Origin: Ilex aquifolium
Taxonomy: Eukaryota > Streptophyta > Magnoliopsida > Aquifoliales > Aquifoliaceae
Length of the DNA stretch: 64,000 bases
NCBI GenBank assembly: GCA_951799425.1
Contig: OX637393.1
Location: forward strand, 21,927,744-21,991,743
Reading direction: 5' to 3'
Shown: positions 546-62,795 of the stretch, piece by piece
Layout: each line of letters starts with the position of its first letter
Position numbering within the stretch: position 1 is the stretch's first letter
Made by a program: the position numbers and the translations under genes
Notes under the pieces: model-generated
Database searches by the model: none
What the model was told of the DNA's origin: nothing
What the model saw: the letters and a program-made list of their open reading frames with translations, nothing else

Positions 546-750
546 AACCTACATGTAGGTTTGTCATCGTCCTACCGGTAGGTTTTGCCCATTGAAAAAG
601 TTCTACTTGTAGGTTTTACATCTTTCTACCGATAAGTTTTGCCTACTGGAAAAGTTCTACCGGTAGGTTTTACATCGTTCTACCAATATGTTTTGCCTGC
701 TCGAAAAGTTCTACCGGTAGGTTTATCATCATTCTACCAGTAGGTTTTGC
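546..750. repeat. palindrome cluster, CTACCGGTAG type
   Basis: About eight copies of an 11-bp motif built on CTACCGGTAGG, several perfect (near 572, 656 and 710), others with one or two changes (CTACATGTAGG, CTACCAGTAGG). Copies are spaced about 25-30 bp apart with repeated linkers such as TTTTGCCTACTGGAAAAG. They lie inside LTR1, downstream of its TATA box. The same motif and linker appear in the unrelated E2 LTR. Confidence 0.85.
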
Positions 751-1597
751 CTATTTTCGCTCATTTTCATCCTTTTTCAATTCCAATTCATTCCAACCAC
801 TCCATATCAAATCAGCACATGTATAATGAAGTTTTTTATGTAAAACATGGTCCATACAAGTTCTATTACAATCATTTCCATAGATTTACATGCCCAAAAT
901 CAAATTTCATAATGTTTTACAAAATAGGTTTTAAAAACCACAAGTTGGCTTTTCTTCATCCTTGAGGCCCCGAATGAGAGCCATCCACCAGTGTGTAATC
1001 CGCACCTGAAATATTTTCCCAAATAGGGTGAGCCACGCTCAATAGGGTATCTTCTAAAGGGGCTACTTCTCAGCCTAGATGCATATGAAATGTTCACATG
1101 CACAATTTCACAAGCAACAAACCTTCCAATCAAGGATATGCAATTCAATGATAGGAATTACCATGTCATGCCATGAAATGAGATGAGACTCACTCATGCA
1201 ACTCAACCCGGGCCGTTACCGGCTCCCTCACACATGCAATGCCATGAGTATAAAAAAATCGGGTATTCCAAGCCCTCGCCATTTATGTTGCACATCCAAT
1301 GACCTTTTAAAAATAAACCATGTGTCTGTTGTTGGGTATTCGGATATTGGAATCTCACTGGCAGTTTCGTACACCGTTAAACTTTTTTAGGCTTGCACTG
1401 ACGAAAGTGTATAAAATAGTAACCGAGTCTTGCACCCGAGGGAGTATCTAGCCCTTCTTGCTATACCCAACACAAGTTTTTCTTTTTCAAGCAACCGTTC
1501 GACTCTGTTGAACCTTGGTCCAACTATACCGAGCCCACTCTTCTTCTTCCAACATTAAACCCAGCTGAGAATGGGGAGAAAATCTGATTTTCTCCCC

Positions 1598-1605
1598 TAT
1601 TTATA
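1598..1605 (-). promoter_or_regulatory. LTR1 TATA box
   Basis: TATAAATA on the minus strand in GC-containing surroundings, about 390 bp from the presumed LTR start, the usual place for the U3 promoter of a plant LTR. Transcription would start near 1570 and run left. Confidence 0.5.
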
Positions 1606-2004
1606 CTCCTAGGATGTTTGGCCCACGTTACGCCACACGTCCTACTTTTTCGGGTCCGATTTCGTCCTGAAACGGTTAAATTTAATCTTGATTCAAGTTC
1701 AAAATATTTATATATGAACTTCCTTGAAATTATTTTCCAAATTACGAAATTTATTCCATATTTTGTTTTTAGGTCACCTGACACTAGATCGTCTCGTAAA
1801 ACGTGAAAAATCTGACTGTCTCGAAATTCGACAAAAATTGACTGGATAATTAGATTTCGCGAGACGAATCCAACGGTGAGGTCCGTTTCTTCATCCGAGC
1901 TCTAGAAAAATTCAGGTTTTCAACCCGTATCGTAGTGAAAAATTACCGTTTTGCCTTTTTTCATAAAAATTTAAATTTACTCGGGTTTTATAGCTTCTCT
2001 TTTG

Positions 2005-4130
2005 TATCATAATTTAGCCTTGACATATGATTGGTCACCACATTCTCAACTCCTTTTTTTTCTTTGATAAGGCTACATGATTAATGAACACAATAATTTA
2101 GAATCTAACTAAATATGATCTGAATTTATCCAAAACAAACACTACAGCAATAAATTCCTTTTCTGTTATGGAATAATTTATCTATGCATCATTCAAAGTT
2201 TTACTTGCATAATAAATCACATAAGGTCTCTTATCTTTCCTTTGTCCTAAGACATCTCCTATAGCATAATCACTAGCATCACACATAAGTTCAAAAGGCA
2301 AAGACCAGTCAAGAGGTTACATAATTGGTGCAAAAATAAGCATGTCTTTAAGTGTATCAAAATTTTTTTGACATGGATCATTCCAATCAAATAATACATC
2401 CTGACACAGAAGATTACATATTAGTCTAGATATTGAACTAAAATCTTTTATGAATCTCCTATAGAACCCTACATGACCTAGGAATGATCGAATATCTTTT
2501 ACAATATTTGGTAGAGGGAGATTTCCTATCAAATTAATTTTTGATTTATCCACTTGAATTCCCTCCGCATAAACAACATGACCTAAGACAATGTCTTGTG
2601 TTACCATGAAATGACATTTTTTCCAATTTAAAACAAGATTTGTTTCCTCACACCAAGTAAGGACTTTTTAAAGTATTTCTCAACACAATTCAAATAAATC
2701 ACTATAGACAGAAAAATCATCCAATAAAACTTATAAAAATTGCTCCACCATGTCACTGAAAATACTCAACATACAACGCTAAAATGTGGCTAGAGCATTA
2801 CACAATTCAAAGGGCATTTTTTTATAAGCAAAAGTGTCAAAAGGACATGTAAAAGTTATTTTTTTCATGATCATCAATTGCTAGTTAAATTTGGTTGTAA
2901 CCACAGTATCCATCCAAAAAATAATAAAATGCATGTCCACCTATCCTCTCAAGAACTTGATCCAGAAAGGGTAGAAGAAAATAGTCTTTCTTGATAAGAG
3001 AATCTAACTTTTAATAGTCAATACACATACGTCAACCGGTGATTGTACGCATAGGAACCAATTCATTTTCTTGATTTCTCACTACTGTAACACCAGAATT
3101 TTTGGGTACTACTTGTATAGGATTGACCCATTTACTATCAAAGATGGGATATATGATATTTACATCTAATAGTTTAAGTACTTCAATCCTAACAACTTCT
3201 TTAAGATGTGGGTTTTACCTACGTTGTGGCTGTCGAGAAGGTTTAAAGTCTTCTTCCAAGTAAATGCTATGAGTAGAGAGAAGAGGACTTATTCTCTTAA
3301 TATCGGCTACTGTCCAATCAATTGTACATTGATAATTTTTTATGACCCTTATCAATTGACTTTCTTGTGACTCTAACAACTTTAAAGATATCACCACTGG
3401 GTAAGTTTCATCCTCCCCCAAGAAAGACATATCTCAAGTCAGCTGGAAGAGGTTTTAACTCTGACTTGGGAGTCATAACACTAGATTCAACAAACTTTGT
3501 TCCATTAGATGATAACTCTTCAAATTTTGGAACCCATGTTCCAACAGTGGACATATCTACAACAGACTCAAAATTATTTACAAACTCAAAAAATGCATGT
3601 GACTCACTTTCTCTCTTACTACAGGCATTTTCAAACAGACTCTGAGTCAATGACTCAATGCAATTCATTTCTTGAAAATCTTCCTCCTCCTTGGGCTATT
3701 TAGCAATATCAAACACATTTAATTCCAATGTCATGTTACCAAATGAAAGTTTAATGATTTCATTCCTACAATTAATAAGGGCATTAGATGTAACAAGGAA
3801 CGGACGATCCAAAATGACAAGAATTTGTGTAATGACATGAAAAACTGGTTGTATATCTAAAACAATAAAATTCACTGGAAAGTAGAATTTATCAACTTGA
3901 ACAAGAACATCCTCAACAACTCCTCATGGAATTTTCATAGACCGATCAACCAACGACAATGTGACATTTATGGGTTTCAATTCACCCAACCCTAACTGCT
4001 AATAGACCGTGTATGGGAGTAAATTGACTCTCCAAGATCAAGCTAAGCTTGCTCAATTTTGAAGTTTTCAATTATGCATGAGACTGTAGGAATTCCAAGA
4101 TCTTTGTACTTTAGAGGAGCCTTATGTTGA
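2005..4130 (-). pseudogene. E1 protease, reverse transcriptase and RNase H remnant
   Basis: From right to left on the minus strand: a protease site near 4040 in which DLGAS has become DLGES next to a stop; the conserved pre-RT segment (3215-3668, with PVVIS and YLEED); RT with the FMDD box changed to LLDD near 2725; the RT-RNase H connection at 2317-2607 (VTQDIVLGH, SFLGHVGFYRRF); and RNase H text down to 2005. A short deletion joins the RNase H core to the VENVV segment at about 2040-2060. Inactive by stops, frameshifts and lost active-site residues. Confidence 0.75.
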
Positions 4131-4149
4131 ATGATAGCCCTAGCTTGGT

Positions 4150-5550: not shown

Positions 5551-5591
5551 AGCGCCAATTAAAATTTGTTTTGAAATGATTAAAATTTATA

Positions 5592-5890
5592 TTTTTCCTT
5601 ATTAAAATTCGTGTCAGTTAAAATTCGATTTACTTTGATTAAAATTTATTTTTTATGTATTAAAATTTGAGTCAAATAAAATTTATATTTTTTTATGTAT
5701 CAAAATTCGAATCGATTAAAATTCAATGCTAATTGATTAAAATTTGATTTAAGCTTTTAATCTGCTCGAATAGAATTTTAATACATAAAAAAATATAATT
5801 TTTAACCAATTCAAATTTTAATACATAAAAATTAAATTTTAATTAACTTAAATCGAGTTTTAATCGACCCGAATTTTAATACGTAAAAAA
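5592..5890. repeat. 300-bp AT-rich inverted repeat (MITE-like hairpin)
   Basis: The left arm (5592-5712), rich in ATTAAAATT and TTTTTATGTATTAAAA, is matched in reverse complement by the right arm (5768-5890) with scattered mismatches, around a loop of about 55 bp. No coding sequence is present. It could be a foldback transposon or MITE. I could not identify a target duplication, so the class is open. Confidence 0.6.
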
Positions 5891-6099
5891 TTTTGAAAAA
5901 TTAGAGAAAATTTCATTAAAGATATACCTATCTAAAAGGGATGTAGATGAAATTTTTCTTAAAATATTTTAACATTTTTAATCTAATAGTAGGTGTCCAC
6001 AAAATTTCAGAAAATAAAAAAAAAAGTCCTTGCAGATATGATCACTATAAGAGATGAGACTAAAATTTTCTCAAATTTTAATTATTTTACGAATTAATG

Positions 6100-6222
6100 A
6101 ATTTAGCCCAACTCATTATACCATTATACCCCATTTATTAAATGGATTAAAAATAAATTAAATTTATTTTACATTCAACCCATCTTGAACCAACCCAACC
6201 CGTTCAATTGCGACCTCTAAAT
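6100..6222. repeat. hAT-like element end
   Basis: Read on the minus strand from 6222 it starts TAGAGGTCGCAATTGAACGG and continues with GGGTTGG-type text, the style of subterminal sequence common in plant non-autonomous hAT elements. A matching partner end was not found. The surrounding 5891-6611 shows no gene other than the 3' flank of the P3 gene. Confidence 0.35.
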
Positions 6223-15877: not shown

Positions 15878-16050
15878 AAACCTACCGGTAGAAGTCAGTT
15901 AAAACCTACCGATAGAAGATCCAAAACCTACCGGTAGGAAAAGTGCACTAGAATTCTTCTACTGCAGCCATGCCAAAAACCTACTGGTAGAAAATGCTTA
16001 TTGGAAAAAACCTACTGGTAGGTTTTTGACGTTCTACTGGTAGGTTTTGC
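15878..16050. repeat. palindrome cluster, CTACCGGTAG type (E2 LTR)
   Basis: Six or seven copies of ACCTACCGGTAG or one-base variants (ACCTACTGGTAG), ending with the phrase GTTCTACTGGTAGGTTTTGC. It begins 246 nt from the LTR start, the same offset as the clusters of different sequence in E3 and the solo LTRs. Confidence 0.85.
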
Positions 16051-17338: not shown

Positions 17339-17867
17339 AGGCTAAGCGTTGAATTCGAAGGCGATTTTGGGACAATGGAGGTATGTCCCGTCATTCTCAT
17401 CACGGGCCGAGGTACGTTGCTCCTTTGTACATATGTGTGTATACTCTTTCAATTGTAAGTAGTATTTTGCATCTGGGGACGTGACAATCAAAATATACTA
17501 GTGAGACGTGCCCTAGGACCAAACATGAATATAGACCAAGACCCACCCAAGGATGCCGGAGACAATTTTGAGGATAATGGTGCCAATATTCCAAGGGGCG
17601 GGAGAGTGCAAAACCCTTGAGCTCCAAACCCCTGAATACAATTCCCCCCTCCGAGAAATGAAGGAAATACTCTCCCAATTGATCCTCTGGCGAGGTCAAT
17701 GAGAGATTATCTTCAACCAACTCGAATGTAAACCCCCACATGTAATAGAACTTGTACCAACTATGTTTGATATACAAATGTATGTTGTATAAGTTTGGGT
17801 TGGTTTTGGAAGGGTTTGAAATGGATTGGAAAAGAAAAACAGGTGAAAAAAGCAAATCTGGACAAAC

Positions 17868-17926
17868 CGTACCGGTACGGCGTACCGGTACCCCCGATGT
17901 CCCGAGAGCCAACTGTACCGGTACAG
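17868..17926. repeat. palindrome cluster, CGTACCGGTACG type (solo LTR)
   Basis: Three palindromes: CGTACCGGTACG, CGTACCGGTACC and CTGTACCGGTACAG. The last ends about 50 bp upstream of the TATA box at 17976, a promoter-proximal position. Confidence 0.85.
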
Positions 17927-17975
17927 TCGGTAAAAATAAAAAATTTTAAACAGTAAAAGTCGGGATTTGGCTGAG

Positions 17976-17982
17976 TATAAAA
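17976..17982 (+). promoter_or_regulatory. TATA box of the solo LTR
   Basis: TATAAAA preceded by palindromes and followed by a T/C-rich stretch, about 250 bp into the LTR. Plausible U3 promoter. Confidence 0.5.
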
Positions 17983-23660: not shown

Positions 23661-25324
23661 TGATTAGCACAAAACTTTGTATATTTTGATGTACTAATCA
23701 TCTCTTTTTAATTATTTTTGGAGATTTAAATGACGGGAGTTAGGTTAATTGAACTCTTAACGATGATATTTGGTGTTTGCAGTTGAATGGTGCCAAATGA
23801 GACCTCTTAAGGCCTTCCCCAATCATATGAGGCAAATGAAGATGAGAAGACAGCTTGTGGATAGCTCAGTGGAGGAGGAAACCAGAAAATCAAGAAACCA
23901 GCCAAACCGTACCGGTATGCTAAGGCTACTGGAGTAAATCGTACCGGTACGCTCAAGCCACTGGAGTTCGCCGTACTGGTATGCCTTGCCTGATCTGTCA
24001 AACTTCCCTGTTGCTCATGATTGCTGATTTAAGGGACCCACTAGCAGACATCCCCTGCTCCCTTGACGCATCTACAATGCTAGTGACCCCTTTCTACACC
24101 TATGATTGCAAGTTGGAGTCTTGGTGATAAATGAGGAGAGAGAAGAGAGAAGAGAAGAAGAGCTAGGTGTGCAGACAAACTCTGTAACCCTTCTTCCAGC
24201 CCAGTACTACTCTGCACCCTACTGATGGAGGTCATTTCTGGAGACTAGGGGATCTCTCCATGCACGTTTTTGGAAGCCAAGTCCAGGGTAGAGAGACATT
24301 CAGCTGGTAGCAGAAAATAGATAGATATAGAGAGAGAAAAGTCTGGAGAAGATGATAAATAGTGTTCTAGAGAGATAAATTTCAGATTTCTGCATTTTCT
24401 TCACTGCATTATCTTGTAATCTGCTGTAAGAACATTTCAAGCTTCATTTGAATACCATTAATGTTGTTTTTCTTCAAGTTCATTGTTAGTTTAATGCTCT
24501 CTTGACTTCTCACCATTAATGCAACAAGGTTCATCATTTTCTTAGCTGTAAATGGGTCTTAAATGCATCATTCTCTAATCTCTGTCTACTTGCATTTTAG
24601 TTATTCAAGAACTTACTCTCTTGCATTGCATTTTTCTTACACAGTCAACTTCATTACAAGCATGAGTAGCTAAATCCTTTAGTTGGTAAAACCAAGGGGA
24701 ATCTCCTCTTGGGTATGCCATATCAACTCATTCTCCTCTCTTTCTAGAGATCAATGGTTTGGTTTGACTGGGTTGTGGGTGGATAAATTGGCGAGTCTTT
24801 GATATTCTGTAGGCCTAGTCACGGTTTATGCTTAGATACTCACCCTTAGTATCCTCAACTTCCCATGAATCAATTGTTCATTCATGCTCTACCGTAGGAG
24901 GGATTCGAGTTGAGATGGCATTCCTATTAGAGTGACCTCTTGGCTTTACCAACATTTGTTTTTCATTTGATTTTCATCAACATACACTACCAAACAACTC
25001 TCAACAACCAAAAGATTTTACATTTTCTCTTACCCGAAATCACTTTCCCCTTGGTTTACTTCCTTCCCCGTAGAAACGACCTTGGAATACCACCAAGTAA
25101 AACACGACCCGCGAAAGTCTCCTTGCGCTTGGGGAGCACTTTTGTACACACACACATAATTTTGTGCATCCACATTTCATATTTCCACCATCCCATTTTC
25201 CTTTCCTCTTGCCCTTTCTTTTCACACTATCCCAAGGGAGAGTGACACTCCCCTTATCCATACATTACACATTTTGAGGGATAGATTTTAGAGGTTAGTA
25301 AATAACAAGGTTTTTCATCAAGCA
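23661..25324 (+). mobile_element. solo LTR, TGATTAG family, inserted in E2 pol
   Basis: Starts TGATTAGCACAAAA and ends TTTTTCATCAAGCA. Flanks are CATAC (23656-23660) and CGTAC (25325-25329), a 5-bp duplication with one CG-to-CA change of the kind produced by methyl-C deamination. Length is 1664 bp and there is no internal region. It is nearly the twin of 40053-41734. U5 carries the CTTGG..CCAAG hairpin (25081-25097) and the GGGAGAGTGACACTCCC block. Confidence 0.9.
23908..23983. repeat. palindrome cluster, CGTACCGGTACG type (solo LTR)
   Basis: Three copies (CGTACCGGTATG, CGTACCGGTACG, CGTACTGGTATG) joined by GCTACTGGAGT-like linkers, starting 247 nt from the LTR start. Confidence 0.85.
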
Positions 25325-26475: not shown

Positions 26476-28751
26476 GTGTTCAAGTATATTTAGTGTACAA
26501 TCACTTTCCTTTATTCTTTACTTTGCAAGCTAATTTGTTTACTTACTTTCATCTATGCATAGTATTCTTTCTATAGTGGTGTTTTTGTCAAAGCTCAGTG
26601 TGAGGTCTTCTCTAACCCTTCTTAACTTTTTAAGTCCATAATTGCATTCCATATCTTTTCGTTGTATTGAGGACAATGCATAGCAAATATGTGAAAAATT
26701 TTAATTTTTTTGTGAAAAATATATGAATGTTGAACCACATTCCCATATTCAAAGTGTTATGGGTTTAGTGATAGTCAGATATTCGCTTTAAACTTTGAAT
26801 GTATGAGCACATGATAGAAGTTTATCCTATGCCAGAGTATCACATGTGTTTTCTTTCGAACTCAACCATAGTGCACCTTGAATGTGTAATTTCGGCAATA
26901 TACGGATTGGATTCACATTTTAGAGATTGACATGCATAGTAGAGGTGAAATAAGTACCCGTGTGAGCTTTATTGTCAATCCTTGTTGGAGGGAACTTACA
27001 TTTACTCAAAGGAATAATTTTTCAAATTCAAAATCTGTTCAATGATCTCATTATGCTTGCTTTGGTTAGAGTGCATGTGGATAGTTGAGTGACTTTGTCT
27101 TGAAATGCCAATATGCCTCCCCATGCTTATCTAGAAATGATCTTAGACCGTCTTTGAATTACTTTGATCCTTAGCCTTTTTCTTGTAAAAAATTTATCCC
27201 TAGTGTCGTGATTGAGCCGTAATTGAAAATTCGTTTCCATGCTAAATGATTGACCAAGCCAGTGTAAAATGATTAAATTTACCACACGTTGGTTGTTCCG
27301 AGACTAACTATGATTAATCATAAAAGAAAGGAAATGTGGTGAGGAAACCCAAAAAAGGATAATTGGTGCCGAATCCAAATTTTGAATGAAAAAGAAGAGA
27401 AAAGCCCAAGAAAAAGGAGAAAAAGGGGGTTGAAAAAAGAAAAGAAAAGAGAAGAAAAATGTTGAGGAAAGAAGAAAAAAAAAAGTGAAGTGAAGGTGTA
27501 AAGCTGAAAATTTTGCAAAAAGGAAATTTTGATAATAAATGTCAATGCCCTCGGAATAACCCTTTTTGTCTCCTTCAACCCTTCATTTCACTCAACCCAA
27601 GTATCACCCCAATGCCTCATTATAACCTTTGAAAGCCCTAAATTATCTAGAGAAAGCATGGTGAGAGCATACTTCCAATGAAAAAGAAAAGTTGATTTTG
27701 CTATTGAGTGCCCTAACATTCCATTCACGAGATTATGCTAAATTCGTTTCAACTGTTATGCATGCACATCATTTTTGGATTATATGTGAGCATTTTAGTT
27801 TGTGCACAAGATTCTATCTCACATATACACATGGAGAGCATGCCAGGATAATCATAGAGTTATTCATTTTTTAGAGAAACCCTTGGTGAGTTTTGCATCG
27901 AAGTTGAATTTGGATAGCTAAGTGAATGTGAATTTCGTTGAGTAAATGCTTAAATTACATGTGCATTTCACACACACACACACAAGTTTGAAAACAAATG
28001 TGCAGGTGTATACTCTAGAATAACATTTAAAGCCATGATGAAACTCATGTGTGCGTAGTTCGGGTGTTTGAAATTTTGTCAGGCAACCCTCTGCTTGAAG
28101 GATAGGGGAATATTGCTCAAATTTTGGATGTGAGAAAGGAATAGGAATGCCTTTTGTATTTCATTTTGTGCTTTATATATATTAGGTGTTCATTTTGGTT
28201 GTTGAATTTAGAACTCCATGTCATGTGTTTTGAAAGCATCAAAAACTCAAATCACATTGCAATTTCGTAAATGAATTTGGGCATGGTCACACATTTGCGG
28301 TTCACTAGCATAGGTCAGGTTTTTTGTAGAGTTGAGGTTATAAATAGGTCAGTAGAATGTGTGGGAGTTGAATAAACTCGGAGTGGAGGTGAGGAAGTGA
28401 GCATCGAAAATTTTTTGAAAAAAGTTGAAACATACTGGTAGAAGTTTGCAGAAACCTACCGGTAGAAATTTTCTAGTGCACTAAAACTACCTGTAAGTTT
28501 TGGTCGTTCTACCGATAGATTTTGCCCAGAAATTCCAAAACGAGGGTTTTAAGTCAGAATTTTCGGTGAAACCCTTCACTTTCTTCACTCCTTTCATCCT
28601 TAAAAATCTTCTCTCTCTCTCAAAATGCTCCAAATACTCAAAGAACCTCTAGCCACTCATCAAATCTCCCGATTATCCTCCCTTTCTCCACAAAATTTCC
28701 CAAATCCATCAAAGACCTAGATTCTCACCCAAAGGCTTGGAATTCAAAGAA
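26476..28751 (+). other. E2 non-coding spacer between integrase and env-like ORF
   Basis: About 2.3 kb without a supported gene. It aligns by eye with 38707-42923 of E3 minus its solo LTR, for example ATTGAGGACAATGCAT and GGAGGGAACTTACATTTACT. An A/G-rich stretch lies at 27360-27500. Long spacers at this place are typical of Athila. The polypurine-like tract present in E3 at 38925 is lost here. Confidence 0.6.
28427..28529. repeat. palindrome cluster, CTACCGGTAG type (E2 pre-env)
   Basis: Four variants (ATACTGGTAG, CTACCGGTAG, CTACCTGTAAG, CTACCGATAG), ending GTTCTACCGATAGATTTTGCC, followed by CCAGAAA and AACGAGGGTTTTAAG. The type matches the E2 LTR, not the E3 pre-env cluster at the homologous place. 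Confidence 0.8.
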
Positions 28752-40052: not shown

Positions 40053-41734
40053 TGATTAGCACAAAACTTTGTATATTTTTATGTGCTAATCATTTTGTTT
40101 TAATTGCTTTTGGAGATTAAATGATGGGAGTTAGGTTAATTGAGTCCTTAACGATGATATTTGGCGTTTGCAGTTAACAGGTGCTAAATGAGGCTTCTTA
40201 AGGCCTTCCCAAACCATTTGAGACAAATGAGGACAAAAAGGTAGCTTGGGGATAGCTCAGGAGAGGAGGAAATCAGAAAATCAAGAAGTCAGCCAAACCG
40301 TACCGGTACGCTAAGGCTACTAGAGTTAATCATACCGGTATGCGTACCAGTACGTAGAAACCACTGGAGTTCACCGTACCGGTACGCGTACCGGTATGCT
40401 TTGCCTGATCTGCCGAAATGCTCTGCAACTCATGTCTGTTGCTTTGAGGGTCCCACCAACAGACCTCCTATGCTCCCCTGACACGCCCACAACACTATTC
40501 ATCCCTTTCACACATTTGATTGCAAGTTTGGAGTCTAGGTGATCAATGAGGAGAGAGAAGAGAAGAGGAGCTGGGTGTGCAGACAAGCTCGGTAACCCCT
40601 CTGTCCAGCCATCCCTCTTGCACCCCTACAGATGGAGGTCACTTCTGAAGACTAGGGCACCTCTCCAAGCACGTTTTTGGAGGGAAAGGGATCTCCAGCA
40701 TTGGCATTCAGCCATGAGACAGGGATAGATAGATATAGAGAGAGATAGTCTAGAGAAGATGATGAATAGTGTTCTAGAGAGATAAAGTGAGATTTTTGCA
40801 TTTCTTTCAATACATTGTCTTGTAATCCCTTGTATGAATCTTTAGAACTTCATTTAATAGCATTAATGTTATTCTCCATGAAGTTCATTGCTAGTTTAAT
40901 GCTCTTGTAAACTTCTACCATTAATGCAACAAAGTTCTTCATTTTCTTAGCTGTAAAATGGTTTTTAAATGCATTCTCTTCTAGCTTATGTTTTCTTGCA
41001 TTTATGTACTCAAGAACTTCATCTCTTTGAAATGCATTCTCATTATCTTGTTGATTTCATTTCAAGCATGAGTAGCTAAATCTTCTAGTTGGCAAAACCA
41101 AGGGGAACCTCCACTTGGGTATGCCATTTCAACTCATTCTCCTCCCTTTTTTCAGAGATCAATGGTTTGGTTTGACTGGGTTGAGGGTGGATAAATTGGT
41201 GAGTCTTTGATATTCCGTAGGCCTAGTCACGGTTTATGCTTAGATACTCACCCTTCTTATCCCTAGCTTCCCACGAATCAATCGTTTATTCATGCTCTAT
41301 TTGAGGAGGGATTCGAGTTGAGATGGCATTCCTAGTGGAGTAACCTCTTGGGTTTGCCAACATTTATTTCCCACTTCATTTTCATCAACACACACTCACC
41401 AAACAAATTTTCAACCACAAAGATTTTACACTTTCTTTTACTCAAAATCACCTTCCCCTTGGTTTAGTTCCTTCCCCGTGGAAACGACCTTGGAATATCA
41501 CCAAGTAAAACACGACCCGCGAAAGTCTCCTTGCGCTTGGGGATCACTTTTGTACACACACACACAATTTTTGTGCATTCATATTTCACATTTCCACCAT
41601 CTCATTTTCCTTTCCTCTTGCCCTTTCTTTTGACACTATCCTAAGGGAGAGTGACACTCCCCTTTATCCATGCAATACACATTCTGAGGGATAGTTTTTA
41701 GAGGTTAGGAAACAACAACGTTTTTCACCAAGCA
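40053..41734 (+). mobile_element. solo LTR, TGATTAG family, inserted in the E3 spacer
   Basis: Starts TGATTAGCACAAAA and ends TTTTTCACCAAGCA, with a perfect 5-bp duplication CATAC (40048-40052 and 41735-41739). Length is 1682 bp. It is close to 23661-25324. The E2 spacer at about 27657 shows the empty site (GAGAGCATACTTCC). Confidence 0.95.
40299..40399. repeat. palindrome cluster, CGTACCGGTACG type (solo LTR)
   Basis: Five palindromes including two perfect CGTACCGGTACG-like units, with CTACTAGAGTT and CCACTGGAGTT linkers. Offset from the LTR start is 246 nt. Confidence 0.85.
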
Positions 41735-42488: not shown

Positions 42489-42640
42489 CAAAACCTTCCG
42501 GAAGGTTTTCCTTACTGGACAAAGGTGTTCTAGCAGTAAGCAAAACCTTCCTAAAGGTTTTGATCGACCTTCCGGAAGGTTTTTCCTATTAGATTTTTTT
42601 TACCTCAGGCAATAAGCAAAACCTTCTGGAAGGTTTTGCC
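42489..42640. repeat. palindrome cluster, CCTTCCGGAAGG type (E3 pre-env)
   Basis: Four palindromes, the first and third perfect within AAAACCTTCCGGAAGGTTTT (20 bp), and a closing ACCTTCTGGAAGGTTTTGCCC. The following CCAGAAA and AACGAGGGTTTTAAG match E2 at 28529, so the flanks are homologous while the palindromes differ in type. Confidence 0.85.
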
Positions 42641-42923: not shown

Positions 42924-44223
42924 ATGGCAAGGATGAATGGTATGTCCATGAGTATGTTTGAGCCGGTGGAGACGCTATGGTGGGTTGTTATGACTCTTCT
43001 AGGTCTTGGGGCACTGTTGTCCCTCATGGCCCGTACGAAGAGGACGGGCCCGGACTCTCCTCCACCTACGGGCTCTAGCTCCTAAAAGAGAGTCGGGGAG
43101 GGCCCAAGTGGCCAAGAGAGGGAAGAGAGAAGGATCAAGGCCAAGCATGATGCCCGGAGGTAACAAATTGAAGAGAAGGGTGTCACGTGTGAGAGGTACG
43201 TTGACAAGGCTTCCCTTCGTCCCAATGATGAAGTTGTGGAATACTCGAGGCTCTGGGGTCACATATTTGATTTAAAGAAATGAAGGGGTATAACTTGGGA
43301 ATGTGCTGTGAGTTTTACACTAAGTTATCGATGTTTGGTGATGACGGGGCAAGACTAAGGACTAATGTGAAGGGAAAAACATTCGAGGTGACCCTCGCTA
43401 CAATCGCCACGGTTATGGAGTATGAGAGACCACCCCCGTCTACCCACACAACATGGATGGGGGTAGGACTCTCTCGGACTATGTGGCCCTCACCTATGAG
43501 GACCCGACCACGTTCAAGGGAACAACGTTGGTCGGGAGCCTCAAATATTCATACGGGGTAATGAATAAAGTCCTTCATTACAACCTGATGCCCCGGGGTT
43601 TAGAGAAGAACCCGAACATTGAGAAGCTGGCCTTACTCCATGCTTTCATAACGGAGGTGGCTATTGATGTGGCACTTTTGATTTTTGAGGAGATGCGGGA
43701 GTTTGCCCTGGCTGCAAAGCCAAAGGCAAATCTCCCTTTTGGCAACCTCATCACCCGTCTCTGCGACCTGGCTAAGGTGAAACACTATGCCCATGACACA
43801 CTGCTCCCCCCAGAGACTGGAGTCATAGGGAAGTCCAGCAGTCAAAAGAGGGCTTCTAGGACTGGGGGTGAGAGACCTGGGGCTAGGGGGACAGAGCCGT
43901 TAGCAGCCGGGCCATCTTCACCAGCACCTCCACCAGCTACTTCTGCTCTTGCACCTACACCTGCCCCGGCTCACACCATACCCCAGTGTCTAGATGCTCT
44001 GGAGTCCACGATGCATGGGCTCTCATTGATGGTGACGAGACTTTTCCAGCATACATTCCTGGGTGAGCCTATCCCCGGTGGACCCCCACAGCCTCTAGCT
44101 GGACCGTCGACCTCTGCTCCAATACCCTCCATGACTGTCGAGGTGGATGACGACGAGGAGTCAAAGTCTGAGTCTGAGTCCGAGACCGAGGAGGAGGATG
44201 CGTTCGATGAGGAGGATGATTGA
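42924..44223 (+). pseudogene. E3 env-like ORF (ORF3 of Athila elements)
   Basis: Start at ATG 42924. The N-terminus has a hydrophobic helix (residues about 19-37, LWWVVMTLLGLGALLSLMA) followed by ARTKRTG, as in E2. There is a TAA at 43083 and at least two frameshifts before the long C-terminal run 43453-44223. That run has the conserved central block (LSDYVALTYEDPTTFKG, MNKVLHYNLMPRG, LALLHAF), a Pro/Ala/Ser/Thr-rich linker, the PQCLDALE..LSLMVTRLF helix, and an acidic tail. Conservation with E2 across the whole ORF shows it was once a selected gene of these elements. Its function is not known from sequence. Confidence 0.7.
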
Positions 44224-44536: not shown

Positions 44537-46278
44537 TGATTAGCACAAAACATTGCATATATTGTATGCTTTTATGCCCTTTTATACTTGCTTGTGTTGT
44601 GATTTTGGGGAGAAATGCGTTTAATCTTCGTTTTAATGGACTTTTGTGTAAATGCGGGTAAAAAGATGTAAATGGTTTGAGTTAAGCCCCCATTGAAGTG
44701 TTTGAAGTCAATGATGATGAGGGGATAGCTTAAAGGAAGGCTTGGAGGGTGAAAAAACCAAGAAAAATGAAAGTTGGATGAAAACATTCCGAAAGGTTTG
44801 GCTAAAAACCTTCCGGAACGTTTTGCCTTGATCTGCATTTTTACTGCCAAAACCTTCCAGAAGGTTTTGTCTACTGGAATGAACCTTTCGGAAGGTTTTA
44901 CCTACTAGTTTCTTCATTTAACTGTTCCTGCACAAACCTTCCGGAAGGTTTTTGTCGACCTTCCGGAAGGTTTTGCCCAGATTTTCCAGACAGCCTGCAA
45001 CTCAAGCTCTGCCATTTGGGGGTCCCACCTACACTTCTCCAACAAGTCCCCTAACATCCCTTACACAAGTACATGCCTCCCATCACCATAGCCTGGACTT
45101 TGAAGGCTTTAGCATTAATGTGGAGGAGAGAGAAGAGGCAATGCAGTGGAGATGCAGGTTAGGCCTGTCCTAGCCTACCAAATGCATCCAATCCTCGCCT
45201 TTTTGGTGTAAGGCCTGCCACACACCTATGAGAGCTCTCTATGGACGAAATTCAGGAGGCATTATGTATTATTCAGTTTGTATTACGTTGTAGAGAGAGA
45301 AGCTCTAGGTAGAAGACAGTTAGAGAGAGAAAGCTTGGATTTTACATGTTCTTACATCCATTTCACTTGTATTCCTCTGTAAGACTTTGTGTAATCTTCA
45401 TTTAATGCTTTTAATGCCATTTATTACAAGCACATTTCAAGTTTAGTCTTACATTTTGGATTTCACCATTAATGCATTGAAGTTCTTCCTTTTCTAAGTT
45501 TAAAATGGGTTTTGAATATTTTTCTTCATAGTTTAAGATTTCTTGCATTAAGTTAAGTTCTAATCTTCATTTCTTTACAATGTCTCTCCATTACTTTTAT
45601 ATTCTTGATTTAAATATGAGTAGCTAGACTTTAAGTTGGCTAATCCAAGGGAGAACTTCTCTTGGGTATGCCATTTCAACTCATTTTCATTCCTTCTCGT
45701 AATGTACAATGACTCGATTTGACTAGATTGAGTGTGTACATGGTTGTGAGTTCTTGATACACCGTAGGCATTGTCATGGGGTATGCTTGAATCCTCACCT
45801 CCATTTTGGTCCCGCGCTTCCTACGAATCAATCGAACATCTACGCACCATTGGAGAAAGATCTCGAGTTGAGTTGGCATTCCCATTGGAATAACCCCTTC
45901 GGATTAACCAACACTTGTTCCCATTTCAATTTCATCAAGATACAACCTCAACCCAAACTCAAACAACAAAATATTTTTACACTTTTCTTTTTGTTCACCA
46001 AAATCACCTTCAACACGATTCACCTCTTTCCCTAAGGAGACAACCTTGGAATATGATTTCCAAGTAAAACATGACATTCGAAAGTCTCTCTGTGCTTGGG
46101 GAGCACTTTTGTTTACACACACACACACACACACATTTCATTCACCCACCATTATTCCGTTTTCCCCCATTTCTTGCATCATTCCGAGGGAGAGTGACAC
46201 TCCCCTATCCCTATAAGCTATATACACATTGAGGGATGATGTCTGGAGATTAGGGAATACAACGGAAACCATCAAGCA
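44537..46278 (+). mobile_element. E3 3' LTR
   Basis: Complete, 1742 bp, TGATTAGCAC to CATCAAGCA. It contains the palindrome cluster at 44781-44978, the GAGTAGCTAGAC block near 45618, the U5 stem-loop near 46045-46064, a CA microsatellite near 46115 and GGGAGAGTGACACTCCC near 46190. No target duplication can be tested because the 5' LTR start is missing. Confidence 0.85.
44781..44978. repeat. palindrome cluster, CCTTCCGGAAGG type (E3 LTR)
   Basis: Six palindromes, perfect or one-off (ACCTTCCGGAAGG, CCTTCCAGAAGG, CTTTCGGAAGG), ending TTTTGCCCAG. It begins 244 nt from the LTR start. Confidence 0.85.
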
Positions 46279-46880
46279 TCGGATGACCTAGGTAACGGTA
46301 CCTAAACCTATAGGCACCAGTACCTGGATTTCAGTGGGATCAGGTACCGGTACCTAGCACCAGGTACCGGTACTCTGATGGACAGTGGGCACAGGTACTG
46401 GTTCCAAGTCACATAGGTATTGGTACCTAAAAAAAAGTGGGATCAGTTACCGGTACCAATGTATATAGGTACCGGTACCTAGAAAATAGAAGGCCTAGGT
46501 ACCGGTACCTCTTCTCAGAATTTAAAATTTTAAAATATAACATAGGAGGGCTTTCACTTCTTGAACAATCCTCTTGGGATGTTGTTAATGGAGGATAATA
46601 AGTCCTAACCATGGGATTTGGACCTTGGAATGGTCATATCATTAATATGTGAACAGGTTACGTGTTGGATAGTGCTCCAATACAAAGGAGACTTTGCATA
46701 GATTTCATTTTGGTTATGACCCTAGTGAATGGGGTATAATAACATGGTATCGGGTTATACGGTACTCACGGGTATACTTACGTGGGTTGATAGGTGATCA
46801 ACGGGTTGAGAAAGGACCCCCAGATTTTCGGGCGTTGCTTGATTTATTCCGTCGTTCCTAATTTTCGACCATGATTCCGG
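46279..46880 (+). mobile_element. LTR1 family fragment
   Basis: Reverse-complement relative of 53553-54200 and 223-760: it contains AACGGGTTGAGAAAGGACCC and GGTATCGGGTTATACGG. It is sandwiched between the E3 3' LTR and an inverted LTR of the E3 family and ends raggedly at both sides. Confidence 0.6.
46289..46510. repeat. palindrome cluster, GGTACCGGTACC type (LTR1 copy)
   Basis: About eight GGTACCGGTACC units or variants, several preceded by TA or CA (TAGGTACCGGTACCT). Confidence 0.85.
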
Positions 46881-48491
46881 TAATGTGTATGTGGCTTATA
46901 CGGTTAGGTGAGTGTCACTCTCCCTCGGATATCATGCAAGAAATGAAAAAACGGGTGTGTGAATGAAATGTGTGTGTGTACAAAAGTGCTCCCCAAGCGT
47001 AGAGAGACTTTCGAGTGTCGTGTTTTACTTGGAATTGGTATTCCAAGGTCGTCTTCTCAGGGAAGGAAGTTGAATTATGTTGAAGGTGATTTTGGTGAAA
47101 AATGAAAAGTGTAAAATCTTTTGAGTTTGAGTTTTGATGACTGAAGTTTGTGATAGAAAATGCAATGGAAACAAGTGTCGGCTAATACAAAGAGGTCATT
47201 CCAATGGGAATGCCAAATCAACTCAAGACATTCTTCCAATGGTGATTAGACGTTCGATTGATTCGTAGGAAGCAAGAGACTAAAACGGAGGTGAGGATTC
47301 AAGCATATCCCGTGACAAGTCTATGGTGTATCAAGAACTCACAACAACATCTACACTCAACCTAATCAAACCAAACCTTCTTACACTACGAGGAGGAATG
47401 AAAAAAAGTTGATTTAGCATACCCAATAGGAATTCTCCCTTGGATTAGTCAACTTAAAGCTTAGCTACCCATATTTAATGCAAGAACATACAATGTGTAA
47501 ATAGACATGGTATTGAAATGGACGTTAAACTTGTATTAAAGTGAAGAGAAGTGAAACTACAAAAATAAGTGCATTTAATACCCAACTAAAAAGCTTGAAA
47601 TGTAAAACTTGAATGTAACAATCGTAGATTGAAAGATACTTGACTAAAATTGAAATACACTTGAAATAAATGACATTAAGTGCAATAAATGAAGCTTACA
47701 AGAGTCTTCTAGAAGATTACAAGTGAAATGGGTAGAAGAAATGCAAAAATCTAACTTCTCTCTCTAAAACTATGTCTTCCTCCTTGAAATTCTCTCTCTA
47801 CGATGCTGAATAATGAAGTCTACTCTTGCATTTTCGTCCATGGAGGTCCTCTAGCATGTGTGACAAGCTTTCCATCCATAGGAGGTTGAGTTGATGGCTT
47901 GGGCAGGCTATGACAAGCCTAGCCTGTAACTTCCCTGGCTTCCCTCTTCTCTCTCTTCCTCATTAATGCTTGGGCCTCCAAAGTCCAACCTTAGGCAAGG
48001 AGAGGCATGTATGTGTGTAAGAGATGTCATGGGACAAGTGGAAGAATCATAGGTGGGACCCCCAAATGGCAGAGCTTGAGTTGCAGGTTGTTTAGCATTT
48101 CTGAGCAAAACCTTCCGGAAGGTCGATGCAAACATTCCAGAATGTTTATTCCAGTAGACAAAACCTTCCGGAAGGTTTAGGCAGTGCATAGGCAGACCAA
48201 CTGCAAACCTTCCTGAAGGTTTATGGCCAAACCTTCCAGAACGTTTTCATCCAATTTGTCTTTTTCTTGGTTTCTTCACCTTCCAATCCTTCCTTTAAGC
48301 TATTCCCTCATCTTTATTGAATTTAAACACTACGATGGGAGCTTAACTCAAGCCATTTACAATTCTTCACCTACATTCACACAAAACTTCATTAAAAGGT
48401 AGATTAAATGCATTTCTTTCCAAATTCTCAACAAAGCAAGTATAAAAAGGGTATAACAACATCCAATATATGCAATATTTTGTGCTAATCA
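46881..48491 (-). mobile_element. minus-strand LTR, E3 family, 3' end truncated
   Basis: Starts at 48491 on the minus strand with TGATTAGCACA and runs through the same blocks as the E3 3' LTR in reverse, including the GGGGGTCCCACCTA block (about 48048-48061 region) and the CCTTCCGG palindromes. The final 60-70 bp of the LTR, with CAAGCA, are missing. It faces the E3 3' LTR, so the two form a large inverted repeat. Confidence 0.75.
48106..48250. repeat. palindrome cluster, CCTTCCGGAAGG type (inverted LTR)
   Basis: Five palindromes including AAACCTTCCGGAAGG twice. The distance to the LTR start at 48491 is 241 nt, as in the other family members. Confidence 0.85.
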
Positions 48492-50866: not shown

Positions 50867-50980
50867 TCTACCAGTAGAACGTATAAAACATACCGGTAGG
50901 TTTTTTCCTGTAAGATTTTCTACCGGTACGTTTTGCATGTCTTCTACCGGTTGGTCTTGCATGTCTTCTACCGGTAGGTC
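50867..50980. repeat. palindrome cluster, CTACCGGTAG type (E2-like LTR)
   Basis: Five units (CTACCAGTAG, ATACCGGTAGG, CTACCGGTACG, CTACCGGTTGG, CTACCGGTAGG) with GCATGTCTT linkers. Confidence 0.8.
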
Positions 50981-51135: not shown

Positions 51136-51192
51136 GGTACCGATATCGAATGGTGTGGATACCGGTACCTATGATACCAGGTACCGATACCT
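51136..51192. repeat. palindrome cluster, GGTACCGGTACC type (same LTR)
   Basis: Three units (GGTACCGATATC, ATACCGGTACC, GGTACCGATACC) about 230 nt from the LTR start. This single LTR therefore carries two palindrome types. Confidence 0.7.
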
Positions 51193-53552: not shown

Positions 53553-54960
53553 TGTTTATGGGATGCCCCAAAATTTGGGGATCTTTTCTCAATCCGTTGA
53601 TCACCTATTAACCCGCGGAATACCCGTGGATACCGTATAACCCGATACCACGTCGTTACACCTCATTCACCGAGATTGTAACAAAATGGAATTCAGGCAG
53701 AGTCTCCTTTGTACTGGAGTACTACCCAACACATAACCTGTTCCCTTATTATTCATATGACCATTCCAAGGTCCAAACCCTAAAGTTTAGGACTTAATAT
53801 TTATCTATTTACATCATCCAAGGGAAAGAGCTCAAGAAGTGAAGGCTCAACCATGTTACAGTTCAATTTTCAGTTTTTGGGAAGAGGTACCAGTACCTGT
53901 GATAAGTGGTACTGGTACTTAAGCCCTCTGGTTGATAGGTACCGGGACGTGGTACCGGTACTTGGGCCCCCGAAAGCGAGATACCTTTACCTATGAGCTT
54001 AGGTACTAGTACCTGAACCTGAGCCCACTGTCAGTGGGGTACCAGTACCTATGAGCCTAGGTACTAGTACCTGAGCTCTCTAGATGTCAAGTATCTATGA
54101 GGTACCAATACCTAGAGCCCAGATTTTCCCCAAACTCTCAAAAATCTAACTTTTAACCCAATAACTCATACAACACCCATTCTATTCATTTGTTTTATAA
54201 AAGAATAATGTCTCATTACATGCCTTTGTCAATAGTACAAGTTTTGTACAAAATTTGTACAAAGCCAAAACATAATATGCAAGAGATTATAACATGTAAT
54301 TCAAGAGCCACAAACTGGCTCTTTCTTCAACACAGGCCCAAATGAGGGTCGTCCCCTGAAGCTTGTCCAATACCTGAAATGTATCCCCATAAATGGTAAG
54401 CCACGCTCAATAGGGTATCTCCTAAGGAGGCTACTCTCCAACCCATATGCATACGAAATGTCACATGCAATTCATCACCTCAAGCATCCATTCAAATACA
54501 TATGTGTCATAAATGAATGCTACAATTTCATGTCATGTCATGAGGTGGAACTCACACATGCAATGCTAACCCAAGCCCTCCACCGGCTCCCATAACACAT
54601 GTCATGTCATGCGTATGCATTTGGGTATTCCAAGCCCCCGCCATTGATGTTAGACATCCAATGATAAAAAAAACCTCTTGTCTTTCTTGGGGTAGGTATT
54701 TATGGACTTCCACCAACAGTCACCTAACCGACACGGCATCTATGGACTTCCACCAACGGTTTCGTGTACACTGACACACTTTATGGACTCAATACCAATA
54801 GGAGTTCATATCCGAAATTGTCGGGTCTTGCACCCGAGGGAGAATCTAGCTCTTCTTGCTAACCCCGACACTTGTTTTCAATACAACCCGTGCGACTTAG
54901 TCGAACCTAAGTCCAACTTTCCCGAGTCCACGTATCAACCTACCAAGGATAGTGTTTGAT
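53553..54960 (-). mobile_element. LTR1 family copy
   Basis: Same orientation as 223-1990, sharing TCTTTTCTCAATCCGTTGA-like text, the AGAGTCTCCTTTGTAC block and CACCCGAGGGAGAATCTAGC near the far end. No primer site or second LTR is visible, so it is a solo or partial LTR. Edges are approximate. Confidence 0.65.
53886..54113. repeat. palindrome cluster, GGTACCAGTACC type (LTR1 copy)
   Basis: About nine units, mostly with A or T in the centre (GGTACCAGTACC, GGTACTAGTACC), as if the central CG had decayed to CA or TG. One unit keeps GGTACCGGTAC. Confidence 0.8.
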
Positions 54961-55283: not shown

Positions 55284-55647
55284 ACGTTTGAACGCCAACT
55301 CACGTTCGAACGTCCACATTGCACTGTAGCAGACTCAACTGCAAAGAGAAGGCGTGTTGCAGTTAGGAAAGAAGACTGAAGCTCTGAGGCACTTGAGTGT
55401 CACGTTCGAATGCCAACTCACGTTCGAACGTGCACTTGAGTTGATTGAAGACCAGACTACTGCGTAGAGTTGGAACTGAACTTCACAGAAGACCAACAGA
55501 TCACTCGAGTGAAAGAGACAGAACACATCTGGCGTTCGAACGCCCTTAGTGCAAAAACGGAAGAAAAGTTCGAACGACAGTCAACGTTCGAACGACCATA
55601 AAGCAAAAACAAAAACAACGTTTGAACGCCAACTCACGTTCGAACGT
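55284..55647. repeat. palindrome cluster, ACGTTCGAACGT type (E4 LTR)
   Basis: About nine units of ACGTTCGAACG(T) or variants, often in pairs such as ACGTTTGAACG plus CCAACTCACGTTCGAACG. The last ends about 95 bp upstream of the TATA box. Unlike the other clusters the core is TTCGAA, but the palindrome and central CG are kept. Confidence 0.85.
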
Positions 55648-61150: not shown

Positions 61151-61780
61151 AAGAATGTAACACCCCAAAACACACCCTGGACGACATTACATACTAAAAC
61201 CATTTTCATCATGAGAGCACTAATATCATCCATAAATAAATTAAACTTCATTCATCATCCATAAAATATTTACATCATTATCCAAAAGAATATGCCCAAC
61301 CATGGCATTTACATCTCAAAAATTAACTAATGTAGCGCAGCGGAAATAATAAAATAAAACTAGACTTTACAAGGTTCAAAATGAATATCCTAGTCTAGAA
61401 AAAAAGGAAGTGTCGCTCTAGGCGTCCACCTCGGGATCCACACTCCCGTCAAGTGGAGTCTCCCAAGTAGCGGGCTCTTCAACCCTTAAGTCCTCCTCCA
61501 GCGGGAAATCTGAAAAATGGTTAGCAGTAGGGGGTGAGCACGAAGTTCTGTAGAAAAATTCTCTCAAACCCATACAAGGTTTAGAAAAGCATTTAAAACG
61601 GCCGGTCTCATTTCACAAATAGCATACATAATCTTTGTAGTAAAACAATGACATTTTACAACTGATCTCAAGTTTAATTAGCCATAGTACTAGAAATGAA
61701 CAATAATAACCAATTCTAATAAACATTCATTTTCAAAATATAAACCATTTCCCACACATTATATAATATTGTGCTCTTTT

Positions 61781-62130
61781 GGCATGAGCATCCTTATAAG
61801 GAACCTCTCACCCTCAAGGCTTGGTTACTCAAGCATCCTTATAAGGAACCTCTTGAGGAAAATCACATACTGTCCTCTTTTGGCATGAGCATCCTTATAA
61901 GGAACCTCTCACCCTCAAGGCTTGGTTTCTTAAGCATCCTTATAAGGAACCTCTTAAGGAAAATCACATACTCTCCTCTCTTGGCATAAGCATCCTTATA
62001 AGGAACCTCTCACCCTCAAGGCATCACAAACTCAAGCATCCTTATAAGGAACCTCTTGAGGGAAATCACATACTCTTCTCTCTTGGCATGAGCATCCTTA
62101 TAAGGAACCTCTCACCCTCAAGGCATCACA
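61781..62130. repeat. 101-bp tandem repeat, about 3.5 copies, inside the solo LTR
   Basis: Units start at 61781, 61882, 61983 and 62085 with GGCATGAGCATCC. Each unit contains GCATCCTTATAAGGAACCTC twice, so a half-unit repeat of about 50 bp is nested in it (seven copies). CCTTATAAGG is itself a 10-bp palindrome, like a CArG box. The repeat lies on the transcribed side of the TATA box. Confidence 0.9.
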
Positions 62131-62679
62131 AACAACCCAACCAAGCATACCATTCCAATATTTATATCATTTTACAAGCATCTCTCCAAAATCCCCAAGA
62201 TATATTATGTAACAATTCCCCAACCAACAAGGAAAATACATGAGATCACAATAACATCATTTTTCTACCCCACACAAACAACTACGGTTTTCGAAGTTCA
62301 TAATAAAGAAGCATTTAAGAAGAAATACATCATTCTCCCAAAAACTAGGGTTTTAAAGCTAGAAAAGAGATTTAATGGGTATTAAACCCTAGCAATGTAA
62401 TCTTTGCAAAAAGCCTAAGAGATGATGATTCTATAGCATATATATACCATTGATAGCAAAAACATACATATATAAATACCCTAGCCTCAATGTAAGTGAG
62501 TGAGAGAAAACCCCTACCTTGATGTTCTTGAAAAAATTAGGGCTTTGATCTTGAATCAACCCTTCAATCTCTTGTTTTCTCTTGATCTTGTGTTTCTCTC
62601 TTTCTCTCTTTCTCTCTTCCTCTCTTATGTTTTCTAGGGTTTGGAGTGGTGTAATGAAGGCTAAGGAGGTGACAAAATG

Positions 62680-62687
62680 TATTTATA
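62680..62687 (-). promoter_or_regulatory. TATA box of the solo LTR
   Basis: TATAAATA on the minus strand, with the palindrome cluster ending about 50 bp upstream, mirroring 17976. Confidence 0.55.
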
Positions 62688-62738
62688 GTGGAGGAAATGG
62701 AGAAAGACCTGCAGTCGGATCGGGCTGGATTTATCGGG

Positions 62739-62795
62739 CGTACCAGTACGCGTACTGGTACGGTTGAGCTACTGGAGTTCGGCGTACCGGTACGG
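62739..62795. repeat. palindrome cluster, CGTACCGGTACG type (solo LTR)
   Basis: CGTACCAGTACG, CGTACTGGTACG and CGTACCGGTACG, with the linker GCTACTGGAGTTCGG that also occurs in the unrelated solo LTRs at 23908 and 40299. Confidence 0.85.

What the first reader, a model, noticed from the sequence alone, without database searches (positions are those of the whole stretch)
546..62795. Fifteen clusters of short CG-centred palindromes across the retroelements
Clusters at 546, 15878, 17868, 23908, 28427, 40299, 42489, 44781, 46289, 48106, 50867, 51136, 53886, 55284 and 62739 each hold three to nine perfect or one-off palindromes of 10-20 bp. Five types occur: CTACCGGTAG, CCTTCCGGAAGG, CGTACCGGTACG, GGTACCGGTACC and ACGTTCGAACGT. 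All have CG in the centre and none encodes protein. Each cluster uses mainly one type. Chance cannot give so many long palindromes in AT-rich DNA. They could be binding sites for dimeric regulators, symmetric methylation targets, or RNA hairpins. I do not know of a described system of this kind.
Basis: partly seen in the sequence, partly recalled or inferred. Interest (0 to 1): 0.88.

Follow-up and report, generated by a model that had tools for sequence, protein, structure and literature searches.

The report
Switchable palindrome arrays in plant retrotransposons
Plant retrotransposons in this genome carry arrays of short DNA palindromes beside their control regions, each lineage with its own palindrome, in a pattern that suggests docking sites for a paired DNA-binding protein whose preference keeps changing.

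Summary
CG-centred perfect palindromes of 10 bp or more number 35 against 6.1 in shuffles. In the whole 800-Mb genome the five 12-mers occur 52,906 times against 319 for the same words read backwards. The arrays sit about 250 bp into Athila-like LTRs, in Tekay-like LTRs, and just upstream of a Transposase_32 (PF20167) ORF that follows pol. Within an element the LTR and internal arrays use the same palindrome. Between related elements the palindrome switches in place: 8 of 8 in-register site pairs of elements A and B differ by the same swap on both arms. A second LTR family switches in place too, and the same types recur in LTR families without detectable similarity. The architecture is not new: Sirevirus "repeated motifs" (PMC2829016) are palindromic arrays in LTRs and 5' of an env-like gene. 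What goes beyond that here is the Ty3/gypsy setting, the coordinated switching and the cross-family sharing. Best reading: binding arrays for a dimeric factor that activates or un-silences the elements, comparable to VANC/VANDAL. Whether host or element encodes the factor is open.

The parts
548..744 (-). T1 array (CCTACCGGTAGG) in a Tekay-like LTR that ends at 223 on the minus strand beside a TTGGTATCAGAGC primer site
15881..16044 (+). T1 array in 5' LTR of element B (LTR about 15632-17312)
17867..17927 (+). T3 array (CGTACCGGTACG) in a Tekay-like solo LTR 17727-19498 with target duplication TCGAA on both sides; TATAAAA at 17976
23908..23983 (+). T3 array in Athila-like solo LTR 23661-25324 (target duplication CATAC/CGTAC) inside element B pol
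28431..28519 (+). T1 internal array of element B, upstream of the Transposase_32-type ORF; mostly decayed sites
28802..29341 (+). element B Transposase_32-type ORF, open piece (PF20167 at E 5.7e-05, 23.5 bits, below the cut-off of 45)
29549..30076 (+). element B ORF, second open piece in the same frame; no Pfam match of its own
40299..40398 (+). T3 array in Athila-like solo LTR 40053-41734 (target duplication CATAC on both sides) inside element A
42490..42633 (+). T2 (CCTTCCGGAAGG) internal array of element A, upstream of its Transposase_32 ORF
43426..44223 (+). element A Transposase_32 (PF20167) ORF, open piece
44785..44971 (+). T2 array in 3' LTR of element A (LTR 44537-46278)
46291..46510 (+). 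T4 array (GGTACCGGTACC) in a Tekay-like LTR fragment 46279-46835
48110..48243 (-). T2 array in reversed Athila-like solo LTR 46836-48491 (no matching target duplication seen)
50867..50978 (-). T1 array in reversed Athila-like LTR (49565 to about 51000)
51136..51191 (+). T4 array, three sites, in unassigned sequence
53886..54112 (-). T4 array in Tekay-like LTR whose end lies about 53555
55284..55647 (+). T5 array (ACGTTCGAACGT), upstream of TATAAATA at 55741, probably in an LTR beginning TGATTAGCAC near 55100 (LTR not verified)
62739..62794 (-). T3 array in reversed Tekay-like LTR (ends 61158 on minus strand); TATAAAT on minus strand at 62683-62689

Best explanation
The clusters are modular arrays of binding sites for dimeric, sequence-specific DNA-binding factors that switch the retrotransposons on or keep silencing off. 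SHOWN: the arrays lie in LTRs and directly 5' of the Transposase_32 ORF; elements A, B, L080 and most sampled relatives use one palindrome in both places; the palindrome is kept in all sampled relatives of element A; related elements carry a different palindrome at the same sites, changed on both arms; the same palindromes occur in LTR families without detectable similarity. MOST LIKELY READER, still a guess: a protein made by the elements themselves, with the Transposase_32 ORF as first candidate (about 30%), otherwise a set of host factors.
For: Enrichment 35 against 6.1 in the window and 52,906 against 319 genome-wide. 30 loci were given of 145 matches to the element A ORF, one of them the window itself: all 30 have T2 as main type in at least one flank; where both flanks have sites, 24 of 26 agree on T2, and the 2 others have one single site of another type in the second flank. 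All 233 sites with up to 2 mismatches lie in the flanks, none in the middle part 1100-2600 of the loci. The 8 matches printed with 67-69% identity all keep T2 upstream, 7 of 8 with an exact palindrome. T1 and T2 arrays of A and B are in register: 5 of 5 LTR pairs and 3 of 3 internal pairs differ by T/A at position 4 and A/T at position 9. L080, an independent T1 element, has T1 in both places around the ORF. LTR-head identities place T1 elements L080 and B outside the T2 group, so T2 looks derived. A Tekay-like LTR family has T1, T2, T4 or T6 at one place with the same flank (5 LTRs); its T2 array matches the Athila-like T2 array, spacers included (82% over 99 bp, E 5e-21). TATA-like boxes follow three arrays by 49-94 bp.
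Against: No binding, expression or methylation data. Half-T1 half-T2 hybrid sites exist: 3,259 genome-wide against 692 for the reversed word; three of nine exact sites in the Tekay-like L001 LTR are such hybrids and L080 has two hybrid-like ones. In T2 arrays palindrome-restoring double changes are not clearly in excess: 7 of 32 double-mismatch sites against 4.7 expected. An aligner tends to lay motif on motif, so part of the register may be imposed. In one Tekay-like LTR the array lies about 850 bp downstream of the TATA-like box. The Transposase_32 model matches no solved fold (best E 1.0). Tandem duplication explains part of the copy number (8 of 15 clusters).
Confidence: 0.6

Rival explanations
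1. Host transcription factors read the palindromes. Element lineages adapted to different host dimers; LTR and internal arrays match because one factor must drive both transcripts.
For: The same types occur in LTR families without detectable similarity, as expected if a common host factor is used. For Sirevirus motifs the authors mainly recovered stress-related factor sites in PLACE (PMC2829016, section 9).
Against: Six types, five of them linked by single symmetric steps, and switching in place within one LTR family would need a host family of many closely related specificities; none was searched for here.
Confidence: 0.3
2. The arrays act as RNA: copies of a self-complementary unit pair with each other in the transcript, giving double-stranded RNA that is cut into siRNA, or a packaging or dimerisation signal.
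For: Six of six arrays folded score better than shuffles (z -2.96 to -6.63; at most 1 of 200 shuffles as good). Palindromes with small RNAs in maize elements are a recalled topic; only listed papers.
Against: Strong folding follows automatically from repeated self-complementary units. Pairing between copies does not need each copy to be a loop-free perfect palindrome. Three arrays lie upstream of TATA-like boxes, hence outside the 5' part of the transcript.
Confidence: 0.15
3. Neutral amplification: palindromes arose by chance and spread by tandem duplication, gene conversion and copying of successful elements, without function.
For: 8 of 15 clusters overlap TRF arrays; high-copy families dominate the counts; hybrids occur. 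Motif and spacer divergence rates were not measured.
Against: T2 is kept in relatives from 89 down to 67% ORF identity; two separate places per element agree; in-register sites switched on both arms in 8 of 8 pairs; at least three LTR scaffolds show the same design.
Confidence: 0.08

Closest known systems
Palindromic repeated motifs (RM) of Sireviruses, Ty1/copia (Bousios et al. 2010, PMC2829016; section 9 and passages read)
   Same: Multi-copy palindromes, element-specific sequence, in the upper half of the LTR starting 200-400 bp in, before a TATA box, and again 5' of an env-like gene.
   Different: Here in Ty3/gypsy elements (pol order RT, RNaseH, integrase); core is a loop-free ACCGGT, TCCGGA or TTCGAA rather than a CGG-CCG signature (the OPIE/PREM motif does contain CCGG); type switching in place and sharing between LTR families within one genome is documented here. 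The paper calls the RM Sirevirus-specific, being absent from classic copia elements.
VANC/VANDAL anti-silencing system (Hosaka et al. 2017, PMC5735166, abstract and results read; Sasaki et al. 2023, PMC10398659, abstract read)
   Same: Element-specific short motifs arrayed in non-coding regions, tandem-repeat turnover, motif change between related elements, and motif present in an unrelated element (AT9TSD1 with the VANC6 motif).
   Different: VANDALs encode VANC proteins with DUF1985; their motifs (YAGTATTAY, AGTTGTCC/AGTTGTAC) are not palindromes. No DUF1985 match in the window ORFs scanned. No protein or methylation effect shown here.
Athila additional ORF with Transposase_32, predicted nuclear (sunflower, PMC11728184, passages read)
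   Same: Same ORF family, in a 3' additional ORF.
   Different: The passages seen do not link it to palindrome arrays; function unknown there.

Membership tests
Sirevirus repeated motif (RM) | Multi-copy palindrome clusters in the LTR, starting 200-400 bp in | tested here: met
   First sites lie 246-249 bp into five Athila-like LTRs; Tekay-like LTR starts were not fixed
Sirevirus repeated motif (RM) | Further copies upstream of the env-like ORF | tested here: met
   Elements A and B, L080, and 24 of 30 related loci with the type in both flanks; that the ORF is an envelope gene is not shown
Sirevirus repeated motif (RM) | TATA box shortly after the array | tested here: inconclusive
   TATA-like boxes 49-94 bp after three arrays; in one Tekay-like LTR it lies about 850 bp before the array; Athila-like LTRs not assigned
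Sirevirus repeated motif (RM) | CGG-CCG core signature | tested here: not met
   Cores are CCGG or TCGA
Sirevirus repeated motif (RM) | Host element is a Ty1/copia Sirevirus | tested here: not met
   RT, RNaseH, then integrase in element A; gag PF03732
Sirevirus repeated motif (RM) | Arrays form CpG islands | not tested
   no CpG-island computation was made
VANC/VANDAL anti-silencing | Element-specific motif arrays in non-coding regions | tested here: met
VANC/VANDAL anti-silencing | Encodes a VANC protein with DUF1985 | tested here: not met
   18 open frames of 150 aa or more scanned at E 0.001; PF20167 in two, DUF1985 in none; the genome was not searched for DUF1985
VANC/VANDAL anti-silencing | Protein binds the motif and causes loss of DNA methylation | not testable with these tools
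   needs plants and bisulfite data

The most novel reading that the evidence does not exclude
LTR retrotransposons own a sequence-specific self-recognition system: the Transposase_32 ORF (basic N-terminus, globular domain, 59-residue helix that may be a coiled coil, acidic tail) binds the palindromes as a dimer and un-silences only its own lineage; specificity switches founded new bursts, and Tekay-like elements hijack the system by carrying the same arrays.
Probability: 0.22. Interest if true: 0.87.

Novelty: new variant of a known kind. Interest (0 to 1): 0.62.

Why it matters
How plant retrotransposons escape silencing is largely open; VANC in DNA transposons is the clear precedent. Arrays whose recognition word changes symmetrically and in concert at two places of an element, and recurs in other element families of the same genome, make a directly testable case of coevolving DNA words and readers. 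They also give a simple sequence label for sorting element lineages.

Tried and rejected
Plain chance: rejected by shuffles and by reversed-word controls. One satellite spreading by slippage: rejected, as types and LTR scaffolds differ, though tandem duplication adds copies. Restoring double mutations as proof of dyad selection: not clearly supported (7 of 32 against 4.7). Fold of the Transposase_32 protein: model of homologue P0005 from 14 sequences (mean pLDDT 74.9), no PDB match at E 0.001 or better. Relatives outside this genome: the T2 pattern hit one viral contig, L005, with scattered sites and no array; the T1 pattern none. Protein search with the element A ORF gave 3 hits, one named, from Vaccinium darrowii; with L007 11 hits. 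Relatives of the element B ORF could not be searched: ten of ten tries unanswered. The T6 count was unanswered. The genome sample stayed at six 8-kb stretches at round-number positions, 3 of which hold such palindromes. Prior-art searches; no title or abstract start in the listings described such arrays in Ty3/gypsy elements, but I opened only five papers (PMC5735166, PMC10398659, PMC2829016, PMC11963269, PMC11728184), the library lacks most subscription papers, and a recalled Genome Research 2016 paper on Sirevirus palindromes was not held. PMC11963269 (Retand, passages): the shown places for 'palindrom' were a reference title; it reports antisense additional ORFs and tandem repeats.
Full report
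WHAT WAS CHECKED. The window is a stretch of nested plant LTR retrotransposons (gag, RT, RNaseH, integrase and Transposase_32 matches; self-comparison). All 15 reported clusters exist. CG-centred perfect palindromes of 10 bp or more: 35 against 6.1 +/- 2.5 in 100 shuffles; other centres near expectation. I call the types T1 CCTACCGGTAGG, T2 CCTTCCGGAAGG, T3 CGTACCGGTACG, T4 GGTACCGGTACC, T5 ACGTTCGAACGT, and T6 GCTACCGGTAGC, found five times in one of six 8-kb stretches taken at round-number positions. Exact counts in the genome with the reversed word in second place: T1 3,175/10, T2 17,078/175, T3 14,692/14, T4 5,913/76, T5 12,048/44. The reversed words have no central CpG, so CpG loss should make this control conservative (inference).

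ANATOMY. Element A: gag-pol 33429-38706, internal T2 array 42490-42633, Transposase_32 ORF (open piece 43426-44223), 3' LTR 44537-46278 with T2 array 44785-44971. Of its 5' LTR only 32258-32955 matches the 3' LTR, so the array part is missing. Element B: 5' LTR about 15632-17312 with T1 array, internal T1 array 28431-28519, the same kind of ORF from about 28752 (its PF20167 match is weak, 23.5 bits, but it is 50% identical to L054). Two Athila-like solo LTRs, 23661-25324 and 40053-41734, with target duplications CATAC/CGTAC and CATAC/CATAC, carry T3. A reversed LTR 46836-48491 carries T2, without a matching target duplication, and a reversed LTR from 49565 carries T1. In five Athila-like LTRs the first site lies 246-249 bp from the LTR start. 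Tekay-like LTRs (name recalled from LTR ends and primer site, not tested by a chromodomain search) fall in two groups that show no match to each other and carry T1, T3 or T4. T5 lies 94 bp before a TATAAATA in what is probably a further LTR. The name Athila-like rests on the Transposase_32 ORF after pol, as in PMC11728184 (passages).

CONCORDANCE AND CONSTRAINT. A protein search with the element A ORF scored 145 matches; loci were given for 30, the window's own among them. All 30 have T2 as main type in at least one flank; in 24 both flanks do; 4 have sites in one flank only; 2 have a single site of another type in the second flank. For matches on the minus strand upstream and downstream are exchanged in these counts, which does not affect agreement. 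Of 233 sites with up to two mismatches none lies in the middle part 1100-2600 of the loci (8 sites with three mismatches do). Of 86 single-mismatch sites, 37 are C-to-T or G-to-A at the central CpG and 19 are C5-to-T or G8-to-A, the pattern of decay of methylated C; none is a T1/T2 hybrid. For the 8 matches printed with 67-69% identity I fetched 460 bp upstream: all 8 keep T2, exact in 7, decayed in L079. Spacers look more diverged than motifs, but rates were not measured.

SWITCHING. In the alignment of LTR heads the arrays of A (T2) and B (T1) are in register at five sites; all five differ by T versus A at position 4 and A versus T at position 9. The internal arrays are in register at three sites with the same double difference in all three. 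Three further sites have no partner (42494, 44884, 15927). The pairing was read from the alignments by eye; an aligner tends to lay motif on motif, though matching spacer words (for example GTTTTTGTCGACC against GTTTTTGACGTTC) support it. L080, fetched because two T1 words lie 2.15 kb apart, is a third element: T1 internal array, Transposase_32-type ORF, purine tract, LTR with T1 array, and two hybrid-like sites. LTR-head identity: 77-89% within T2 copies, 64-69% L080 to T2, 59-64% B to T2, 62% B to L080, 51-56% T3 solo LTRs to T2; ORF identity L080 to T2 57-62%, L080 to B 60%, B to T2 46-50% (and 52% over 27 residues with A). So T1 is spread outside the T2 group, and T2 looks derived; this is a reading of identities, no tree was built. 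In a Tekay-like LTR family, five LTRs with one scaffold carry T2 (L001), T1 (window 546), T4 (46.3 and 53.9 kb) or T6 (L067) before the same right flank. With motifs masked, spacers of the Tekay-like T1 array still resemble Athila-like arrays (33 against a shuffle maximum of 27 for the B LTR; 39 against 28 for the reversed T2 LTR), and a Tekay-like T3 array resembles one T3 solo LTR (25 against 20) but the other less (20 against 21). This test is not specific: of 105 pairs, 25 were listed with at most 4 of 200 shuffles as good, among them pairs of different type such as the reversed T2 LTR with T5 (29 against 25). The L001 T2 array matches that of element A over 99 bp at 82%. Arrays thus seem to be passed between LTR families.

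RESULTS AGAINST. Hybrid CCTACCGGAAGG sites number 3,259, reversed word 692. Free mixing of T1 and T2 half-sites would give about 7,600 by my arithmetic from these counts, but lineage structure confounds this. Most of the 100 listed hybrid places fall, by eye, in groups spaced as in L001. Palindrome-restoring doubles are not in clear excess. RNA folding is strong. The array position relative to TATA differs between families.

THE ORF. The PF20167 protein of an outside homologue models with a globular domain, a 59-residue helix and disordered ends; the alignment shows a basic MAxKRQR start in five members and an acidic end in several. No solved fold matches. PF20167 copies of another lineage (L006-L035, 30 of 150 scored matches) carry CGCCTAGGCG within one mismatch in 21 of 30 loci, 47 sites, all outside the middle part; in the four loci with three or more perfect copies they lie on the upstream side of the ORF. 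CG-centred palindromes of 10 bp are nearly absent there (one each in 2 of 30 loci). The ORF family therefore travels with palindrome arrays of lineage-specific sequence, which makes it the first candidate reader; this is association only.

COMPARISON. The closest known case is the Sirevirus repeated motif: 13 copia elements with palindromic motifs in the LTR and, in the nine with ENV, upstream of ENV (PMC2829016). The architecture is the same; element class and core differ, and membership fails on both. The closest mechanism is VANC (PMC5735166). I therefore file the finding as a new variant of a known kind.

Noticed in passing
L006-L035 (for example L008 404-601, L035 474-606): Another Transposase_32 lineage carries CGCCTAGGCG arrays, TA-centred, spaced about 62 bp, upstream of the ORF; L021 and L023 have CGCTG...CAGCG dyads instead.
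   Followed up: partly
window 42924-43080; window 28752-28900; L038, L054, L058, L080: After a hydrophobic N-terminal stretch the ORF reads MARTKRT (window A, L038), LARTKRT (L054) or MAHTKRT (L058, and L080 by my reading of its DNA); element B reads IARTKQTG. This resembles the histone H3 tail ARTKQT (recalled). It could be chance or mimicry.
   Followed up: no
window 23651-23660 and 40043-40052: Both T3 solo LTRs inserted after the same word AGATGCATAC, at different places of related elements, suggesting a preferred target.
   Followed up: no
L001 and L080 arrays; window 44870, 40360, 62770: Spacers share a non-palindromic word near CTACTGGA in Athila-like and Tekay-like arrays; it may be a decayed half-site or a second motif.
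   Followed up: no
window 61774-62124: 3.5 copies of a 101-bp tandem repeat inside the Tekay-like LTR with the T3 array.
   Followed up: no
window 5592-5889: Inverted repeat of 124-bp arms, 85% complementary, 50 bp apart.
   Followed up: no
window 53533-53550: A run of 18 G beside the end of a Tekay-like LTR.
   Followed up: no
L005 (IMGVR_UViG_3300009788_000302) 472-7977: A viral contig with several scattered CTTCCGGAAG sites; relation to the arrays not examined.
   Followed up: no
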